This document shows, piece after piece, positions 39,819 to 56,476 of a DNA stretch of 64,000 nt. A program made the position numbers and the translations under genes. Positions within the stretch are counted from its first letter, which is position 1. Every line of letters starts with the position of its first letter. The notes under the pieces are model-generated. The model was not told where the DNA came from. It ran no database searches and was given only the letters and a program-made list of their open reading frames with translations. The stretch is from Herbidospora sakaeratensis (GTDB lineage: Bacteria; Actinomycetota; Actinomycetes; Streptosporangiales; Streptosporangiaceae): positions 426,363 through 490,362 of the forward strand of contig NZ_BBXC01000009.1 in assembly GCF_001570525.1 (NCBI RefSeq). The letters run 5' to 3'.

Positions 39819-40019
39819 ATGGAGCTTCGACTGCGACTTCCTGATGGGGTTCACGGCCGGCTGCGGGCCGCGGCCGAGGAGGACGGCAACAGCCTGAACA
39901 CCGAGATCGTGATCGCGATCGAAGAGCACCTGGCGCGCCGTCAGACGAGTGCGGTGCGGGCCATCGCCCGTAAGGTCGCCGAGCGAGACGCGGAACTGCT
40001 GCACCGCCTGTCCCAATGA
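39819..40019 (+). CDS. RHH-type antitoxin
   Basis: A 66-residue protein. The N-terminal strand and helices (MELRLRLPDGVHGRLRAAAEEDGNSLNTEIVIAIEEHL) match Arc/FitA-like ribbon-helix-helix DNA-binding antitoxins. The C-terminal tail (AIARKVAERDAELLHRL) would occlude the toxin. ATG at 39819, next to a palindromic operator. It overlaps the Doc gene by four bases, giving translational coupling. Confidence 0.85.
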   Translation: MELRLRLPDGVHGRLRAAAEEDGNSLNTEIVIAIEEHLARRQTSAVRAIARKVAERDAELLHRLSQ

Positions 40020-40417
40020 CGGTCTATCTGACCACGACCGATGTCCTGGCCGCCGCCGAGGAGATCCTGCCCTCGGCCGATCTGCGTGACGGCGGACTCC
40101 TGCATGTGGCCGTTCTGCGCCCGCAGACCAGCGTCTTCGGCAAGAACGCCTACGCCGATCTGTGGACCAAGGCCGCGGCCCTGATGCAGAGCCTGATCAT
40201 CGGCCATCCATTGGTCGACGGCAACAAACGGCTGGGCTGGACCTGCGCGGTCGTCTTCCTGGAATTGAACGGCGAGACGCTCGTCGGCACCGATGCCGAC
40301 GCCGCTGAGCAATTGGTCATCGCGGTCACCAACGGCGAACTCGACGACGTGACCGAGATCGCGAAGACCCTTAGAGCGCTGAATCCGGGAAGCGCTGAAG
40401 AGCAAGCGGGCTCCTGA
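40016..40417 (+). CDS. Doc-type Fic toxin
   Basis: A 133-residue Fic-fold protein of the Doc family. The Fic motif is HPLVDGNKRLGW, with catalytic His64 and the GNKR phosphate loop. It continues with CAVVFLELNGETLVGTDADAAEQLV. Doc proteins phosphorylate or otherwise modify EF-Tu, halting translation, and are held inactive by the antitoxin. The motif has the expected Asp68, Asn70 and Lys71, so it should be active. A truncated second copy of its C-terminus lies 0.8 kb downstream. Confidence 0.88.
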   Translation: MTVYLTTTDVLAAAEEILPSADLRDGGLLHVAVLRPQTSVFGKNAYADLWTKAAALMQSLIIGHPLVDGNKRLGWTCAVVFLELNGETLVGTDADAAEQLVIAVTNGELDDVTEIAKTLRALNPGSAEEQAGS

Positions 40418-41033: not shown

Positions 41034-41226
41034 GCCCCGCGAAGTCAACGGCCGGACCGCCGTAGGGTGTGCAGGTCGCACGGGGAGATGTCACAGGTCA
41101 AAGCAACCTGCGCGGAGAGGCGCGGCCTCCCCACGTGGGGGTGCCGCACTTCTCCTGCGGCCTGGGCGATCTACCTCAGATGGGAGAATGTCGCGCGGCC
41201 GGGCGCCGCATCGACCTGCTCACGAA

Positions 41227-41407
41227 GGGCGGTTGGACCTGCGCCGTCGTCTTCCTGGAATTGAACGGCAAGATCCTCATCGGTACCGATGCCGCCGAGG
41301 AATTGGTCCTCGCCGTCACCGCCGGCAGACTTGGCGATGTGACCGTGATCGCCAAGAACCTTCGGGAACTGAGAGCGGAAGAGGCCGGGGACCAAGCGGA
41401 CTCCTGA
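41227..41407 (+). pseudogene. truncated second copy of Doc (C-terminal half only)
   Basis: Encodes GWTCAVVFLELNG followed by GTDAAEELVLAV...IAKNLRELR, homologous to residues 74-133 of the intact Doc at 40016-40417, ending at an equivalent stop. The N-terminal half and the HPLVDGNKRL Fic motif are missing. An in-frame ATG upstream at 41069 adds unrelated residues. It cannot be a Fic toxin and is taken as a decayed duplicate. Confidence 0.8.
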
Positions 41408-42042: not shown

Positions 42043-42323
42043 GGTCTCATCATCTCGGCGGGTACGTCATCTCCGCCAGTCACCGCCCCTGCTGACCGGC
42101 ATCGGCCGGCAGCATCGCGTCATGCGACGAGGCGCTTTGAGCGACGACCGCGCACGTCAGCCCAAATAGCCGCCGGAAAGATCACCGCGATTGCCGATCC
42201 GCCGGGCAACAACCCCGAGCCTCGCAACGTTTGCGGCGCCCTCGACCAGCTCAGCCCCCTTCCCCTGACCGCGTCCCGAGTCATCGCGAAGCCCAAACGA
42301 CCCCGAGCGAAGCGAGCTCGACC

Positions 42324-42547
42324 CGAGCGAAGCGAGGCCCGTCCAGAGAGCGCGAGGGGCGGAGCCCTTCGCCCGGAGCGCAGCGACCCGGAGCGACAGC
42401 GACGCCAGGGGCGCGCAAGCGCACCAGGGGGAGCGCGAGGGGGCGAAGCCCTCTCGTATCGGGGGGTTCGGGGGGTCGTCCCCCCGGGTGAATGAGGAAC
42501 GGCTCGCGAAAGGCGCCGAAGGCGCCGCCCACGAGCCGTTCCGAAAA
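42324..42547. repeat. 0.2-kb direct repeat, copy 2, abutting a tRNA
   Basis: A 224-base copy of the element at 40531-40738, with extra AGCGAAGCGAG motifs to its left (from about 42304) and a small internal insertion. Its right end stops exactly at the 3' end of the tRNA on the minus strand. Together with the flanking sequence it fills the 500-base gap left of the tRNA. Confidence 0.85.
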
Positions 42548-42621
42548 TGGGGTTGGCGGGACTCGAACCCGCGCTGGCATGATCCTAAGTCATGTGCCTC
42601 TGCCAATTGGGCTACAACCCC
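42548..42621 (-). tRNA. class I tRNA with anticodon UAG (reads CUA)
   Basis: A 74-base cloverleaf folds cleanly on the minus strand. Acceptor stem GGGGTTG/CAACCCC with discriminator A, D-arm GCC/GGC around AATTGGCAGA, anticodon stem CATGA/TCATG with loop CTTAGGA, five-base variable loop, and T-stem GCGGG/CCCGC with loop TTCGAGT. CCA is not encoded. The anticodon UAG predicts leucine, but leucine tRNAs are class II with a long variable arm, which this lacks. The identity is therefore uncertain. Confidence 0.85.
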
Positions 42622-42658: not shown

Positions 42659-43129
42659 TCAGGAAACCCCGAGTTCCTTGAGTAGTCGCGCGACGTGCCC
42701 GGTCGCGCGGACGTTGTAGAACGCCTTCTCGATCTTCCCGTCGGGGTCGATGACGAAGGTCGACCTGATCACGCCCATGATGGTCTTGCCGTAGTTCTGC
42801 TTCTCGCCGTAGACGCCGTAGGCCTTGTGGACTTCGAGGTCTGCGTCGGACAGCAGCGGGAAGGTCAGCGCGTCGCGTTCGGCGAACTGGCGGAGCTTGG
42901 CCGGTTTGTCCTTCGAGACGCCGAGGACGGTGATGCCCTTGCCGGTGAGCGCGCTCAGGTTGTCGCGGAAGTCGCACGCCTGCTTGGTGCAGCCTGGAGT
43001 CATCGCCGCTGGGTAGAAGTAGAGGACGACTCGCTTGCCGTGGAGCGAGTCGAGCGACACTTCGTCGCCGTCGGCGCTGGTCAGGGTGAAGCCGGGGGCG
43101 GCGTCGCCGGGTTCGAGTCGCTGGGTCAT
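42659..43129 (-). CDS. bcp: thioredoxin-dependent thiol peroxidase (Bcp/PrxQ)
   Basis: A 156-residue cytosolic peroxiredoxin that reduces hydroperoxides. Peroxidatic Cys in PAAMTPGCTKQACDFRD (Cys47), with a second Cys at 52 giving the intramolecular disulfide of the PrxQ group. LGVSKD and TFVIDPDGKIEKAFYNV follow. It lies between the tRNA and a divergent DUF3618 gene. Confidence 0.95.
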   Translation of the reverse strand: MTQRLEPGDAAPGFTLTSADGDEVSLDSLHGKRVVLYFYPAAMTPGCTKQACDFRDNLSALTGKGITVLGVSKDKPAKLRQFAERDALTFPLLSDADLEVHKAYGVYGEKQNYGKTIMGVIRSTFVIDPDGKIEKAFYNVRATGHVARLLKELGVS

Positions 43130-50315: not shown

Positions 50316-50350
50316 GAAGCGCACCTCGAATAAGGTCGGATGTCAGCATC

Positions 50351-50533
50351 CTCCCCCTCTGTCATGGGTGCCTGAGAGCTTCGCCCGAGTTTTGCCGGAC
50401 TTTCACCTTCGGCGAGGCCACCGGCCTGCTTTCCAGAGGACACCTCGCCCGCACGGTCCTTTGCCTTGAGAGGTTCGCGGGGAGGGCTTGCTCCTTCAGG
50501 GGCCCTGGCCGGCTGCCAGGGCGCTCTCCCGCG
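50351..50533 (-). promoter_or_regulatory. tandem glycine riboswitch
   Basis: On the minus strand the leader of gcvT shows both glycine aptamers: GGGAGAGCGC, then CCTGAAGGAGCAAGCCC and CCTCTCAAGGCAAAGGACCG; a second unit with TCTGGAAAGC, CCGAAGGTGAAAGTCC and AGCTCTCAGGCACCCATGAC, then ACAGAGGGGGA. These are consensus elements of the tandem gcvT riboswitch, which turns on glycine cleavage when glycine is high. The switch ends 36 bases before the gcvT start. Confidence 0.93.
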
Positions 50534-50557
50534 CGGGATCAATGGTGTGCGGTCAGC

Positions 50558-52027: not shown

Positions 52028-53365
52028 CTACTCCGTTGCGATGAAGACGTTCTTGGTCTCGGTGAAGGCGGCCAGCGCGTCGGGGCCCAGCTCACGGCCC
52101 AGGCCCGACTGCTTGAAGCCGCCGAAGGGCGTCCAGTAGCGGACCGACGAGTGGGAGTTGACGCTGAGGTTCCCGGCCTCGACCCCGCGCGCCACCCGGA
52201 ACGCCCGGCCGACGTCGCGGGTCCAGATGGAGCCCGACAGGCCGTAGGGGGTGTCGTTGGCCATCCGGACCGCGTCGGCCTCGTCGTCGAACGGGACCAC
52301 CGACACCACCGGGCCGAAGACCTCTTCGCGGTACGCCGGGTCGTCGTCGCCCGTGAGGACCGTCGGCGGGAACCAGTAGCCGGGGCCCTCCGGGCAACTG
52401 CCCTGGAAGTAGGGGTCCGACACGTAGGAGCGCACGCGGGCGAGGTGTTCGGCGCTGACCAGCGGGCCCATCTGGGTGTCCTCGGCCGTGGGGTCGCCCG
52501 TTCTGATCGCCTTCACGGCCTCGGTGAGCCGGGCGAGGAACTCGTCGTGGACGGCACGCTCCACCAGGATGCGCGATCGGGCGCAGCAGTCCTGGCCGCT
52601 GTTGTCGAAGACGGCCATCGGGGCCGACGCGGCGGCTTTCTCCAGGTCGGAGTCGGCGAACACGATGTTGGCGGACTTGCCGCCCAGCTCCAGCGTCAGC
52701 CGTTTGACCTGGGATCCGGCCTGCGCGGCGATCAGCCGGCCGACCTCGGTCGAGCCGGTGAAGACGATCTTGGCGACGTCAGGGTGCTCGACCAGGCGGG
52801 CGCCCGCGACCTCGCCCGCGCCGGGCACGACCTGGAGCACCCCCTCGGGCAGCCCGGCCGCGAGGGCCAGCTCGGCCAGCCGCAGCGCCGACAGCGGGGT
52901 CCATTCGGCGGGCTTCACGATGACGGTGTTGCCCGCCGCCAGCGCCGGGGCGGCCCCCCACATCATGATCACCATGGGGAAGTTCCACGGCACGATGACG
53001 CCGACCACGCCCAGCGGCTCCTGGAAGGTGACGTCGACGCCGCCGGGCACCGGGATCTGCTTGCCGTGGTTGCGCTCGGGCGCGCCCGCGTAGAAGTTCA
53101 GCACGTCGCGGACGTTGCCGGCCTCCCAGCGGGCGTTGCCCACGGTGTGCCCGGCGTTCGCGATCTCCAGCTGGGCGAGCTCCTCGGCGTGCTCCTCGAC
53201 CAGCGCGGCGAAGCGCCGCAGCAACCGCGCGCGTTCGCCGGGGGCGACGTCCTTCCAGCTCCGGTACGCCGTGCGCGCCGTCGCGACCGCCCGGTCGACC
53301 TCGGCGGGGTCGGCCAGCTCGACGTCGGCCAGGACCTGCTCCGTCGCCGGGTTGATGATCTTCAC
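52028..53365 (-). CDS. aldehyde dehydrogenase (gamma-glutamyl-aminobutyraldehyde type)
   Basis: A 445-residue NAD(P)-dependent enzyme. GVIVPWNFPMVIMMWGAAPALAAGN, FTGSTEVG for NAD, catalytic Glu in LELGGKSANIV and the nucleophile in FDNSGQDCCARSRI (two adjacent Cys). It lies between the glutamine-synthetase-like gene and the SDR, so it most likely oxidises gamma-glutamyl-aminobutyraldehyde or a similar aldehyde. GTG start overlapping the preceding gene by four bases. Confidence 0.94.
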   Translation of the reverse strand: MKIINPATEQVLADVELADPAEVDRAVATARTAYRSWKDVAPGERARLLRRFAALVEEHAEELAQLEIANAGHTVGNARWEAGNVRDVLNFYAGAPERNHGKQIPVPGGVDVTFQEPLGVVGVIVPWNFPMVIMMWGAAPALAAGNTVIVKPAEWTPLSALRLAELALAAGLPEGVLQVVPGAGEVAGARLVEHPDVAKIVFTGSTEVGRLIAAQAGSQVKRLTLELGGKSANIVFADSDLEKAAASAPMAVFDNSGQDCCARSRILVERAVHDEFLARLTEAVKAIRTGDPTAEDTQMGPLVSAEHLARVRSYVSDPYFQGSCPEGPGYWFPPTVLTGDDDPAYREEVFGPVVSVVPFDDEADAVRMANDTPYGLSGSIWTRDVGRAFRVARGVEAGNLSVNSHSSVRYWTPFGGFKQSGLGRELGPDALAAFTETKNVFIATE

Positions 53366-54708
53366 AGCCGTTCGAACCCCCGATAGAGCTCCCAGTCGGT
53401 GACCGCCGCGTCGAAGGCGGCCAGCTCGACCCGGGCGTTGTTCGCGTAGTGGTCGACGACCTCGTCGCCGAAGGCGTCCCTGGCGAGCGTAGAGCCCTCG
53501 AAGACCGCCAGCGCGTCACGCAGCGTCGAGGGCACCGTGTCGGCGCCCGAGGCGTACGCGTTGCCGGTGAAGGCGTCCTCCAGCGGGAGTTCGTCGTCGA
53601 TGCCCGAAAGGCCTGCGGCGATGAGGGCCGAGACGGCCAGGTAGGGGTTGACGTCGCCGCCGGGCACCCGGTTCTCGATGCGGAGCGAGCCGCCGTGGCC
53701 GACCAGGCGGAGCGAGCAGGTGCGGTTGTCGACGCCCCACTTGACGGCCGTGGGGGCGAAGGACCCCTCGACGAACCGCTTGTAGGAGTTGATGTTGGGG
53801 GCGTACAGGAGGGTGAGCTCGCGCATCGCGCGCAGCTGGCCGGCGATGAAGTGCTCGCCGAGCCTGGAGAGGCCGTGGGGGCCGTCGCCGGCCATCACCG
53901 GCGTGCCGTCGGCGTCGCGCAGCGAGATGTGGACGTGGCAGGAGTTGCCCTCGCGCTGGTTCGGCTTGGCCATGAACGTGAGGGACATGCCCTCCTCGGC
54001 CGCGATCTCCTTGGCCCCGTTCTTGTAGACGGAGTGGTTGTCGCAGGTGGTGAGGGCGTCGGCGTACTTGAAAGCGATCTCGTGTTGACCAAGATTGCAT
54101 TCGCCCTTGGCCGACTCCACGTACAGGCCGGCGCCCTCCATGCTGAGACGGATGCGGCGCAGCAGCGGTTCCACCCGGGCCGTGCCGAGCAGGGAGTAGT
54201 CGACGTTGTAGAGGTTCCCGGGGACCAGATCGCGGTAGCCGGACCGCCAGGCGTCCTCGTAGCTGGTGCGGTAGACGCAGAACTCCAGTTCGGTGCCGAC
54301 GAGGGCGGTCCAGCCGCGCTCGGCCAGCTTCGCGGTCTGCCGCTTGAGGATCTGGCGCGGCGACGGGACGACGTCGGAGCCGTCCTCCCAGACCAGGTCG
54401 GCCAGCAGCAGGGCGGTGCCCTCCTGCCACGGGACCCGTCTCAGCGTGGCCAGGTCGGGCTTCATGACGAAGTCGCCGTAGCCGTGCTCCCACGACGACA
54501 TCGCGTATCCGCCGACCGTGTTCATCTCGACGTCGACGGCCAGCAGGTAGTTGCAGCCCTCGGCGGCGTGGTCGAGCACCTCGTCGAGGAAGTGCCGCGC
54601 CGACAGGCGTTTGCCCTGCAGGCGGCCTTGCATGTCCGTCACGGCGAGCAGGACGGTGTCGATCCGGCCCGCCTGCGCCTCTGCCCGTAGTTCGTCGACC
54701 GTCAGCAC
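53362..54708 (-). CDS. glutamine-synthetase-like gamma-glutamylpolyamine synthetase
   Basis: A 448-residue protein of the GlnA family. VGTELEFCVY and the C-terminal NRTCSLRLVGHGGSLRIENRVPGGDVNPYLAVSALIAAGL and the KPNQREGNSCHVHISL region are GlnA metal/ATP-site motifs. The short form resembles GlnA3/GlnA2/PuuA that glutamylates putrescine or other amines, rather than ammonia. GTG start at 54708 after GGTGAGG. It heads an operon with ALDH, SDR and PuuD genes, divergent from a GntR gene. Confidence 0.88.
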   Translation of the reverse strand: MLTVDELRAEAQAGRIDTVLLAVTDMQGRLQGKRLSARHFLDEVLDHAAEGCNYLLAVDVEMNTVGGYAMSSWEHGYGDFVMKPDLATLRRVPWQEGTALLLADLVWEDGSDVVPSPRQILKRQTAKLAERGWTALVGTELEFCVYRTSYEDAWRSGYRDLVPGNLYNVDYSLLGTARVEPLLRRIRLSMEGAGLYVESAKGECNLGQHEIAFKYADALTTCDNHSVYKNGAKEIAAEEGMSLTFMAKPNQREGNSCHVHISLRDADGTPVMAGDGPHGLSRLGEHFIAGQLRAMRELTLLYAPNINSYKRFVEGSFAPTAVKWGVDNRTCSLRLVGHGGSLRIENRVPGGDVNPYLAVSALIAAGLSGIDDELPLEDAFTGNAYASGADTVPSTLRDALAVFEGSTLARDAFGDEVVDHYANNARVELAAFDAAVTDWELYRGFERL

Positions 54709-54726
54709 CCGCGCCTCACCTTCTAC

Positions 54727-54742
54727 GGTATGAAAAAATACC
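54727..54742. promoter_or_regulatory. candidate GntR operator
   Basis: GGTAT-N6-ATACC palindrome between the divergent glnA-like operon and the GntR/FCD regulator gene. It is 19 bases from the start of the former and 29 bases from that of the latter. The placement fits repression of both. Confidence 0.6.
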
Positions 54743-54771
54743 AATGAAGGAGTGCAAATGGGGAGGGTGGG

Positions 54772-55494
54772 GTGAAGGAAACACAACTCGGATCGTTGTT
54801 GCGTCCGGTCCGGGCCGGGAACGCGTTCGAGGAGACCGTCGAACGCCTGCTCCAGGCCATCAAGCTCGGGGTCGTCCCGCACGGCGAGCGGCTGCCGTCG
54901 GAGCGGGATCTGGCCGTCCACCTCGGCATCAGCCGGGTCACCCTGCGCGAGGCCATCCGCTCCCTGCAGGAGGCCGGCTACCTCGACGTGCGGCGCGGCC
55001 GCTACGGCGGCGCGTTCGTCGTCTACTCGCCGCCCGAGCCGGGGCACGGCGACCTCGCCGAGGCGGTCAACCAGATGGGCGCGGGCGACCTGGCCGACGC
55101 GCTGACCTTCCGGATGGCCGTCGAGTGCGGCGCCGCGCAGATCCTGGCCACCCTGACCCTCGACTCGGCGCAGCGGGCGGTGCTGCTGCGGCGGCTGGCC
55201 GACGTGAACGGGGCCGCGCCCGCCGACTACCGCCGGCTCGACACGGCCTTCCACCTGGCGATCGCCGAGCTCACCGGCTCGCCGCTGCTCGCCGCGGCCT
55301 GCGCCGACGCGCGGCTGCGGGTCACCGACCTGCTCAACGCCATCCCGGTGCTCGGCCCGAACATCGCCCACGCGGCCGCGCAGCACCAGGCGATCGTGTC
55401 GGCGATCCTGGCTGGCGACCCCGATGGCGCGTCGCGGGCGGTGGCCGAGCACCTCGAAGGCACCGCCGCGCTGCTGCGCGGGTTCCTGGCCTGA
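54772..55494 (+). CDS. GntR/FadR (FCD) family regulator
   Basis: A 240-residue regulator. N-terminal winged helix-turn-helix (LPSERDLAVHLGISRVTLREAIRSLQEAGYLDVRRGRYGG), then an FCD effector domain with metal-binding-like residues (MAVECGAAQIL, DTAFHLAIAELTGSPLL, HQAIVSAI). GTG start after GGGAGGG. It is divergent from the polyamine/gamma-glutamyl operon with a palindrome between, so it is its probable repressor, releasing on an amine or acid ligand. Confidence 0.9.
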   Translation: MKETQLGSLLRPVRAGNAFEETVERLLQAIKLGVVPHGERLPSERDLAVHLGISRVTLREAIRSLQEAGYLDVRRGRYGGAFVVYSPPEPGHGDLAEAVNQMGAGDLADALTFRMAVECGAAQILATLTLDSAQRAVLLRRLADVNGAAPADYRRLDTAFHLAIAELTGSPLLAAACADARLRVTDLLNAIPVLGPNIAHAAAQHQAIVSAILAGDPDGASRAVAEHLEGTAALLRGFLA

Positions 55495-55533
55495 AGAGAT
55501 CACCTGGGTAGAGTCGGCCCGGGGGGCGTGCCG

Positions 55534-56265
55534 ATGGGTGAGGTTTTCCAGCGGGCCGTGGTCGACACCCACCGGCTGCCGCTGTTCTGCTTCTTCGTGG
55601 CGTTGATCGTGACGTTCGTGTTCACGCGCATCAACGTGCGGTTGATCCGGGCCGAGGTCCGGTGGTGGTTCAAGAACGTCAGCGTGGGCGAGACCCACGT
55701 CCACCATGTCGTGTTCGGCGTGATCCTGATGATGGCCAGCGGCGTGACCGCGCTGCTCATCTGGCCCGCCTCCGAGGGCTGGCTCGCCGTCACGGCGGCG
55801 GTGTTCGGGATGGGCTCGGGTCTCGTCCTCGACGAGTTCGCGCTGCTGCTGCACCTGCGCGACGTCTACTGGGCCGAAGAGGGCCGCACCTCGGTCGACG
55901 CCGTCTTCGTCGCCGTCGCCGTCACCGGCCTGCTGCTCCTGGGGGCCCGGCCGCTGGGGTGGGACGACGTCACCGGCGACTTCTGGCTCGCCGTCCTGCT
56001 GCTGGCCGTCAACCTCGTCTTCGCCGTCGTCACCCTGCTCAAGGGGAAGATCTGGTCGGGCCTGCTCGGGGTCTTCGTGCCGGTCTTCGGGTACGTCGGC
56101 GCGGTGCGCCTCGCCCGCCCGGGGTCGCCGTGGGCCCGCTGGTTCTACGAGACCCGGCCGGTCAAGCTGGCCAAGGCGCTGCACCGGGAGGAACGCTGGC
56201 GGCGGCCGGTCATCAAGGCGAAGATCGCCGTCCAGGAGTTCGTGTCGGGGCGGCACATGGGTTAG
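55534..56265 (+). CDS. conserved integral membrane protein, unknown
   Basis: A 243-residue protein with about five to six helices. A conserved run after the first helix reads RINVRLIRAEVRWWFKNVSVGETHVHHVVFGVILMMASGV. DEFALLLHLRDVYWAEEGR and the basic C-terminus KALHREERWRRPVIKAKIAV follow. No transporter motif is recognised. A GTG at 55528 is an alternative start. It is followed by a small gene 31 bases downstream. Confidence 0.75.
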   Translation: MGEVFQRAVVDTHRLPLFCFFVALIVTFVFTRINVRLIRAEVRWWFKNVSVGETHVHHVVFGVILMMASGVTALLIWPASEGWLAVTAAVFGMGSGLVLDEFALLLHLRDVYWAEEGRTSVDAVFVAVAVTGLLLLGARPLGWDDVTGDFWLAVLLLAVNLVFAVVTLLKGKIWSGLLGVFVPVFGYVGAVRLARPGSPWARWFYETRPVKLAKALHREERWRRPVIKAKIAVQEFVSGRHMG

Positions 56266-56296
56266 CCGGACGCCGTATCGGGCAGTCCGCAACGCC

Positions 56297-56476
56297 ATGG
56301 GACTCTACGCGAAACTCCGTGAGATGAAGGCCAGGGCCAAGCAGGAGATCGGGCGGCGCACGGGCGACCGCCGGATGGTGGCCGCGGGCCGCACCGAACA
56401 GGCGGAGGCGAAACTGCTCCGCACCCAGGACCGCATCCGGACCGTCGCCAACGAGATCCGCCGCAGGTACCGGTGA
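56297..56476 (+). CDS. CsbD-like small charged protein
   Basis: A 59-residue helical protein (MGLYAKLREMKARAKQEIG...EIRRRYR), too short to be called by length filters. It resembles the CsbD stress-response family by length, charge and pattern (KLREMKARAKQEIGRRTGDRRMVAAGRTEQAEAK). It has a plausible start, ends at a TGA that overlaps the next start and so is coupled to the following gene. Confidence 0.65.
   Translation: MGLYAKLREMKARAKQEIGRRTGDRRMVAAGRTEQAEAKLLRTQDRIRTVANEIRRRYR

What the first reader, a model, noticed from the sequence alone, without database searches (positions are those of the whole stretch)
42548..42621. tRNA with UAG anticodon but no long variable arm
The cloverleaf is well formed, yet the anticodon loop CTTAGGA predicts a leucine CUA reader, while a leucine tRNA should have a long variable arm. 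The short (five-base) variable loop points to another identity. It could be a tRNA that inserts a different amino acid at CUA, a regulatory reader of a rare codon, or an unusual leucine tRNA. Rare CTA codons do occur nearby, at codon 6 of pncB and near the end of the MBL hydrolase gene.
Basis: partly seen in the sequence, partly recalled or inferred. Interest (0 to 1): 0.75.

Follow-up and report, generated by a model that had tools for sequence, protein, structure and literature searches.

The report
Short-armed leucine tRNA at swap-prone locus
This is a leucine tRNA that lacks the long arm bacterial leucine tRNAs normally carry; in this group of soil bacteria the short and long versions have repeatedly replaced each other at the same chromosomal spot, often next to a gene for a DNA-cutting enzyme that may drive the swap.

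Summary
In detail: 42548-42621 (minus strand) is a well-formed tRNA with anticodon UAG and a 5-nt variable loop. It is best read as a functional leucine tRNA, not a recoding tRNA. It is the only UAG tRNA found in its genome. A15 + A73 + a 13:22 mismatch is shared only by the five Leu tRNAs among 48 distinct tRNAs. CTA codons align with leucine in a same-genus relative (13 of 13). Leu(UAA) and Leu(CAA) of this genome are short-armed too; Leu(CAG) and Leu(GAG) are class II.

The larger finding lies around it. Of 249 genomes of the order, a class I UAG pattern hits 162, a class II UAG pattern 64, both none. Both kinds sit near the same peroxiredoxin gene in 39 of 39 loci examined. Within one genus (Nonomuraea by sequence match) they alternate at least 7 times. 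There, 12 of 15 class I alleles follow an HNH-endonuclease ORF, whole or broken, that reaches into the tRNA's 5' end. The window's copy has no such gene. Homing-driven replacement is the likely, unproven cause.

The parts
42548..42621 (-). class I tRNA-Leu(UAG); sole UAG tRNA found in the genome
   Evidence: ARAGORN and RF00005; genome inventory
42585..42587 (-). anticodon UAG (loop CUUAGGA)
   Evidence: sequence and ARAGORN
42573..42577 (-). 5-nt variable loop CCAGC in place of a class II arm (15 and 17 nt in this genome's Leu(CAG) and Leu(GAG))
42496..42542 (-). strong hairpin 5 nt 3' of the tRNA, probable terminator (no consensus terminator with a U tract found by the scan)
   Evidence: fold -41.5 kcal/mol, z -7.72
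42659..43129 (-). peroxiredoxin (bcp-like) gene 37 nt 5' of the tRNA; landmark of the locus in 39 of 39 loci examined
   Evidence: Pfam AhpC-TSA 139.5 bits; synteny

Best explanation
The gene is a working leucine tRNA of class I build and the only decoder of CUA found in this genome. LeuRS should accept it because bacterial LeuRS relies on A73, the U8-A14 and A15 corner and the D-loop layout rather than on the long arm (inferred from E. coli and Aquifex data; charging not shown). It occupies the conserved tRNA-Leu(UAG) site by the bcp gene, where in relatives a class II tRNA-Leu(UAG) stands instead; the two are allele-like alternatives that have swapped many times in the order (shown by synteny, mutual exclusion and a tree). 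The most likely driver is a selfish module: an HNH endonuclease ORF that ends inside the tRNA's 5' end and travels with the class I tRNA, cutting alleles that carry the other tRNA while the linked tRNA keeps the cell alive (module seen in relatives; cutting and direction inferred, about 0.5). The endonuclease is absent at this locus in the window's genome, and the class I tRNA is present in all 7 genomes of its genus sampled.
For: Sole UAG tRNA found, one tRNA per Leu anticodon. A15 + A73 + 13:22 mismatch in 5 of 5 Leu and 0 of 43 other distinct parsed own tRNAs. One LeuRS; the second PF13603 hit is a ValRS-like ORF (both names are my reading of the sequences). CTA faces Leu at 13 of 13 positions in G091 where the partner codon is not CTA/TTA/TTG. 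Class I 162, class II 64, both 0 of 249 genomes, expected overlap 41.6. bcp near both kinds in 39 of 39 loci. Genus g7: 9 changes on a 28-row tree, one clade for class I rejected, p-AU 3.2e-9. Sister genomes G182/G118 align at 92% and 88% on either side of a non-aligning 654/311-nt block holding the tRNA. HNH-like ORF at the tRNA 5' end in 12 of 15 g7 class I loci and in 12 of 117 named-genome class I UAG genes, against 0 of 415 other isotypes there.
Against: Position 48 is C, not the U of the other four Leu tRNAs. Similarity outside the identity positions does not single out Leu. In the more distant G134 the CTA test is weak: 4 of 9 loose, 2 of 3 strict; TTA is uninformative (1 of 2 and 0 of 1). 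No HNH gene at the window's locus or at the 10 other loci outside g7. 5 of the 12 g7 HNH ORFs are truncated or in pieces. 4 of 13 g7 class II loci carry their own inverted HNH ORF at the tRNA 3' end, so a drive may run both ways. No charging or cleavage data.
Confidence: 0.8

Rival explanations
1. CUA is reassigned: the tRNA carries another amino acid, as mitochondrial tRNA-Thr(UAG) does in yeast.
For: Short variable loop; whole-body similarity nearest Pro/Met; the yeast mitochondrial precedent is described in PMC7609411 passages.
Against: CTA faces Leu 13 of 13 in G091; Leu identity set present; relatives in the order use class II Leu(UAG) at the same site and none of 249 has both.
Confidence: 0.03
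2. The swaps are driven by escape from nucleases, toxins or phage defences that recognise the long variable arm of class II tRNAs; HNH genes are bystanders that use tRNA flanks as landing sites.
For: Defence systems cleave tRNA-Tyr in the variable loop and a phage tRNA with a different loop resists (PMC13096335 passages); [quoted passage not shown] phages carry class I tRNA-Leu (77 phage records match the window's tRNA; of 10 fetched phage matches 7 are class I UAG and 3 class I UAA).
Against: In bacteria the HNH ORF goes with UAG, not with class I Leu genes of other anticodons (0 of 47 in named genomes, 0 of 79 in genomes of the order; 1 of 69 in viral contigs). No long-arm-specific Leu nuclease was looked for.
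Confidence: 0.2
3. Both tRNAs coexisted in an ancestor as neighbours and lineages lost one or the other.
For: Same bcp site for both.
Against: No genome of 249 shows both; no trace of the other tRNA above shuffled scores within 900 nt on either side in 28 g7 loci; sister genomes at about 90% identity differ by a whole non-aligning block.
Confidence: 0.12
4. A dedicated regulatory reader of a rare codon, like bldA for UUA in Streptomyces (recalled).
For: CTA is rare: 69 in 102,327 codons, 0.67 per thousand.
Against: As the only CUA reader found it must serve every CTA codon; no regulatory signal was found, though none beyond a promoter and terminator scan was sought.
Confidence: 0.04

Closest known systems
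Class II tRNA-Leu(UAG), the usual bacterial form
   Same: Anticodon; A73, A14/A15 and a 13:22 mismatch as in this genome's class II Leu tRNAs; same bcp locus in relatives; never found together with class I
   Different: No long variable arm; C13 and C48; different acceptor stem
Short-variable-loop tRNA-Leu(TAG) of horizontally acquired tRNA clusters in mycobacteria (PMC6582537, passages read)
   Same: Anticodon and short variable loop; the cluster also holds an HNH endonuclease gene
   Different: There an extra copy beside a normal class II gene; here the only UAG tRNA found, standing alone
Phage class I tRNA-Leu(UAG), e.g. Rhodococcus phage Dorin and Gordonia phage Sixama
   Same: 82% of the tRNA covered at 90.3% and 85.5% identity; Sixama has an HNH gene overlapping the tRNA 5' end by 10 nt
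   Different: 5 of 7 fetched phage UAG copies have other tRNAs on the same short stretch, and all 7 have other acceptor stems
SegB of phage T4, a homing endonuclease that favours inheritance of the T4 tRNA region (PMC2988022 passages; the original paper was seen only as a reference)
   Same: Free-standing endonuclease gene next to tRNA genes, spread by DNA break repair
   Different: GIY-YIG and phage-borne; here HNH (PHROG 10822), chromosomal, linked to the cell's UAG tRNA
Human mitochondrial tRNA-Leu(UUR)
   Same: Leucylated without a long arm, essentially through A73 and A14 (PMC9976931 passages)
   Different: Organelle tRNA with its own LeuRS

Membership tests
bacterial leucine-accepting tRNA | discriminator A73 | tested here: met
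bacterial leucine-accepting tRNA | A14, A15 and D-arm layout with G18G19, A20a and a 13:22 mismatch | tested here: met
   (14, 15, 13:22 by script; G18G19 and A20a by eye in D-arm GCCCAATTGGCAGAGGC). The roles of A15, G18G19 and A20a are from PMC9976931 passages; that of the 13:22 mismatch is recalled
bacterial leucine-accepting tRNA | U48 (A15-U48 pair) | tested here: not met
   C48 here; U48 in the other four own Leu tRNAs and in at least 90% of the 23 aligned class I Leu tRNAs. I still file it as Leu because the other elements and the codon test agree; this lowers the claim slightly
bacterial leucine-accepting tRNA | its codon stands for leucine in proteins | tested here: met
   CTA to Leu 13 of 13 in G091; 2 of 3 in G134; loose version 13 of 14 and 4 of 9
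bacterial leucine-accepting tRNA | charged by LeuRS | not testable with these tools
   one LeuRS gene present
class II tRNA-Leu | variable arm of 10 or more nt | tested here: not met
   5 nt; so it is not filed as class II
homing cassette (intronless homing) | endonuclease gene beside the carried gene | tested here: not met
   none at the window's locus; present, whole or broken, at 12 of 15 g7 class I loci
homing cassette (intronless homing) | replacement between homologous flanks in closely related genomes | tested here: met
   three sister pairs in g7; not seen in the window's own genus, where all 7 sampled genomes have class I
homing cassette (intronless homing) | site-specific cleavage of the cassette-free allele | not testable with these tools
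   needs purified protein

The most novel reading that the evidence does not exclude
The class I tRNA-Leu(UAG) with its overlapping HNH gene is a natural home-and-rescue element in bacterial chromosomes: the endonuclease destroys the resident gene for an essential tRNA, and the linked, differently built tRNA both replaces its function and resists cutting. A rival class II module with its own inverted HNH gene competes for the same site. The window's tRNA would be the fixed remnant of one such conquest after loss of the endonuclease.
Probability: 0.35. Interest if true: 0.88.

Novelty: new variant of a known kind. Interest (0 to 1): 0.64.

Why it matters
Bacterial tRNA-Leu is described as a class II tRNA. 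Here an order of bacteria flips its UAG tRNA between class I and class II at one locus, which gives natural replicate experiments on how LeuRS and the ribosome tolerate the change. If the linked HNH gene drives the flips, it is a natural counterpart of synthetic cleave-and-rescue gene drives (known to me from recall and from a search listing), built on an essential tRNA. It also warns annotators that a short-armed tRNA with a leucine anticodon need not mean recoding.

Tried and rejected
First survey patterns misled me: requiring GCAGA in the D loop found class II UAG in only 1 of 249 genomes and class I UAG in 69. A tRNA inventory of G050 showed a class II UAG with GCATA that these patterns miss, so they were replaced. 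In 23 of 249 genomes neither replacement pattern hits; at least two of these (G051, G191) show another class I UAG form, so the 23 are partly pattern misses. A model search found class I UAG in 9 of 11 f1 genomes that the first pattern had missed; the other two (G025, G050) are class II.

Whole-molecule similarity as an isotype test failed: best own-genome matches were Pro and Met at 0.683. Two of the 53 own hits (L049, L050) got no amino acid from ARAGORN and are not among the 48 parsed tRNAs. No remnant of the other tRNA was found near either kind in g7 (scores at or below shuffled maxima in all 28 loci). The promoter scan gave only a match inside the tRNA, which I ignore.

The state labels are barely clustered on the g7 tree: 8 changes against a shuffled mean of 10.1, 57 of 500 shuffles as low. 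Recombination of the neighbouring genes themselves could raise the count.

No print description of the class I/class II swap was found in searches (open-licence PMC papers only; only the top listings were seen); PMC6582537 is the nearest. Paper passages were seen by word search only, never a whole paper.

Full report
What is there. The window holds one tRNA, 42548-42621 on the minus strand, anticodon UAG, 5-nt variable loop. A strong hairpin follows it, and a peroxiredoxin gene (AhpC-TSA) ends 37 nt before it on the same strand.

The genome. RF00005 gives 53 hits in the 8.6-Mb assembly (completeness 100). ARAGORN on these loci gives one tRNA per Leu anticodon: CAG (L045) and GAG (L048) are class II; CAA (L042), UAA (L036) and UAG (L034 and the window) are class I. 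So three of five leucine isoacceptors are short-armed, and none of the three has a class II partner among the hits. The UAG sequence core matches Herbidospora mongoliensis among the named loci, so the genome is probably Herbidospora or near it (inference).

Which amino acid. Passages of a review (PMC9976931) give A73, the A15-U48 pair, G18G19 and A20a as leucine determinants in E. coli and say the long arm is not one. Here A14, A15, A73, a 13:22 mismatch and, by eye, G18G19 and A20a are present. A15 + A73 + 13:22 mismatch occurs in 5 of 5 Leu and 0 of 43 other distinct parsed tRNAs of the genome. Position 48 is C, an exception. Overall similarity does not point to Leu. The genome has one LeuRS ORF; the second PF13603 hit reads as ValRS (both names are my reading). 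Codon test: 400 kb of this genome (288 called genes, 102,327 codons) against stretches of G091 (same genus) and G134 (same family) placed by the tRNA anchors. Counting only partner codons other than CTA/TTA/TTG in well-aligned surroundings, CTA faces Leu 13 of 13 in G091 and 2 of 3 in G134, TTG 114 of 126 and 47 of 50, TTA 1 of 2 and 0 of 1. The loose version gave CTA 13 of 14 and 4 of 9. CTA is leucine as far as this test reaches; TTA is untested.

Spread. A class I tRNA with anticodon UAA, UAG, CAA or CAG matches the pattern in 207 of 249 genomes of the order and 63 of 296 of the phylum, so short-armed tRNAs with leucine anticodons are widespread there. For UAG: class I in 162 of 249, class II in 64, both in 0 (expected 41.6), neither in 23. 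By identical tRNA cores in named records, g1 matches Herbidospora, g7 Nonomuraea and g2 Microbispora, one record each, all Streptosporangiales; this naming is inference.

Same place, two tRNAs. I compared 39 loci, chosen for contig length and for genus g7, not at random: 22 class I from 8 genera (g1, g3, g7, g13, g15, g17, g35, g37) and 17 class II from 4 (g7, g12, g18, g57) (and the window). The bcp gene is near the tRNA in 39 of 39. It is 5' on the same strand in 36; in 3 class II loci (G050, G080, G039) it is 3' and opposite. In g7 (15 class I, 13 class II loci) a tree of four neighbouring proteins needs 8 changes of tRNA class with two outgroup rows (7 forced by well-supported branches) and 9 on the 28 rows alone; holding class I as one clade is rejected, p-AU 3.2e-9. 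Pairs G182/G118, G146/G090 and G232/G049 are sisters at 100/100 support with opposite classes. In G182/G118, DNA alignment at 92% and 88% flanks a block of 654 nt (class I) against 311 nt (class II) that does not align: an in-place swap.

The linked endonuclease. The gap between bcp and the tRNA is 378-682 nt at 12 of the 15 g7 class I loci, 46-132 nt at the other 3, and 89-203 nt at the 13 class II loci. The extra length holds an ORF for an HNH endonuclease (Pfam HNH_3 25.4 and HNH 22.7 bits, both over cut-off; PHROG 10822, E 6.9e-52; G092 tested). It lies on the tRNA strand at exactly those 12 loci, 5 of them truncated or in pieces (G122, G137, G170, G202, G232), and at 0 of 7 class I loci outside g7 in that set, the window included. 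At 8 of the 12 its stop codon is tRNA nucleotides 8-10, TAG. A motif test over all Leu tRNAs held finds that exact overlap at 13 loci, all class I UAG: the 8 in g7, L130 (g11), L329 and L371 (Microtetraspora), phage Sixama (L237) and viral contig L437. In Sixama the HNH CDS is 262-504 and tRNA-Leu(tag) 495-570, same PHROG (E 1.6e-26). Across the loci held, HNH with its C end at the tRNA 5' end, same strand: class I Leu(UAG) 12 of 117 in named genomes, 15 of 41 in genomes of the order, 1 of 7 in phage records, 2 of 122 in viral contigs, 0 of 3 own (the same gene more than once). Other isotypes in the same order: 0 of 415, 0 of 78, 0 of 26, 4 of 930, 0 of 63, and 0 of 14 in plasmid records. Other class I Leu: 0 of 47, 0 of 79, 0 of 5, 1 of 69, 0 of 3, and 0 of 3. 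Overlapping loci can count a gene twice, and most loci were gathered round Leu genes, so these are not random samples; in phages and viral contigs the link is weak. The 12 named carriers include Nonomuraea, Microbispora, Microtetraspora, Planomonospora, Actinomadura, Actinospica, Actinomycetospora and Pseudonocardia. At 4 of 13 g7 class II loci a related HNH gene (335-339 aa ORF in three) lies inverted at the tRNA 3' end; that is 4 of 22 class II UAG genes held from the order.

Mechanism. Shown: a class I tRNA with leucine features; mutual exclusion of the two patterns; one shared site; repeated swaps in g7; an HNH gene run into many class I alleles. Inferred: LeuRS charging; that the HNH protein cuts the other allele; that repair from the class I allele carries tRNA and endonuclease together; that the window's lineage once had and lost the endonuclease. 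T4 SegB is the nearest proven parallel (PMC2988022 passages). A selective alternative is escape from effectors that attack long-armed tRNAs; retron-Eco7 and Septu cut tRNA-Tyr in its variable loop (PMC13096335 passages).

What was known. Mycobacterial tRNA clusters with an HNH gene and a short-variable-loop tRNA-Leu(TAG) beside a normal copy are in print, with the proposal that homing and phages moved them (PMC6582537 passages). PMC11541572 names M. tuberculosis Leu-2, -3 and -5 as long-looped. I found no report of class I as the sole UAG tRNA or of the in-place alternation.

Noticed in passing
L132, L137-L139, L143-L147, L198: These class I tRNA-Leu(UAA) genes of the order have anticodon loop CCUAAAA, that is C33 in place of the near-universal U33 (read by eye).
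   Followed up: no
L135, L141, L142, L058, L064: Some genomes carry class I tRNA-Leu(CAG) and tRNA-Leu(GAG) side by side, in G025 and G050 next to a tRNA-Tyr(GUA); G025 and G050 have a class II CAG gene as well.
   Followed up: partly
window 50349-50541 (-): Tandem glycine riboswitch aptamers, 67.3 and 47.2 bits.
   Followed up: no
window 40016-40417 (+) and 41069-41407 (+): A Fic/DOC-family ORF (Pfam Fic 46 bits) followed by an ORF that repeats part of its sequence by eye and gives no Pfam hit, possibly a decayed copy.
   Followed up: partly
window 42300-42480: By eye, a GC-rich stretch with recurring gagcgaagcgag-like units just beyond the hairpin 3' of the tRNA.
   Followed up: no
window 53365-56301 (-): A 978-aa ORF whose C-terminal third (647-973) is a glutamine synthetase catalytic domain (321.8 bits); no Pfam hit at E 0.001 in the rest.
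   Followed up: no
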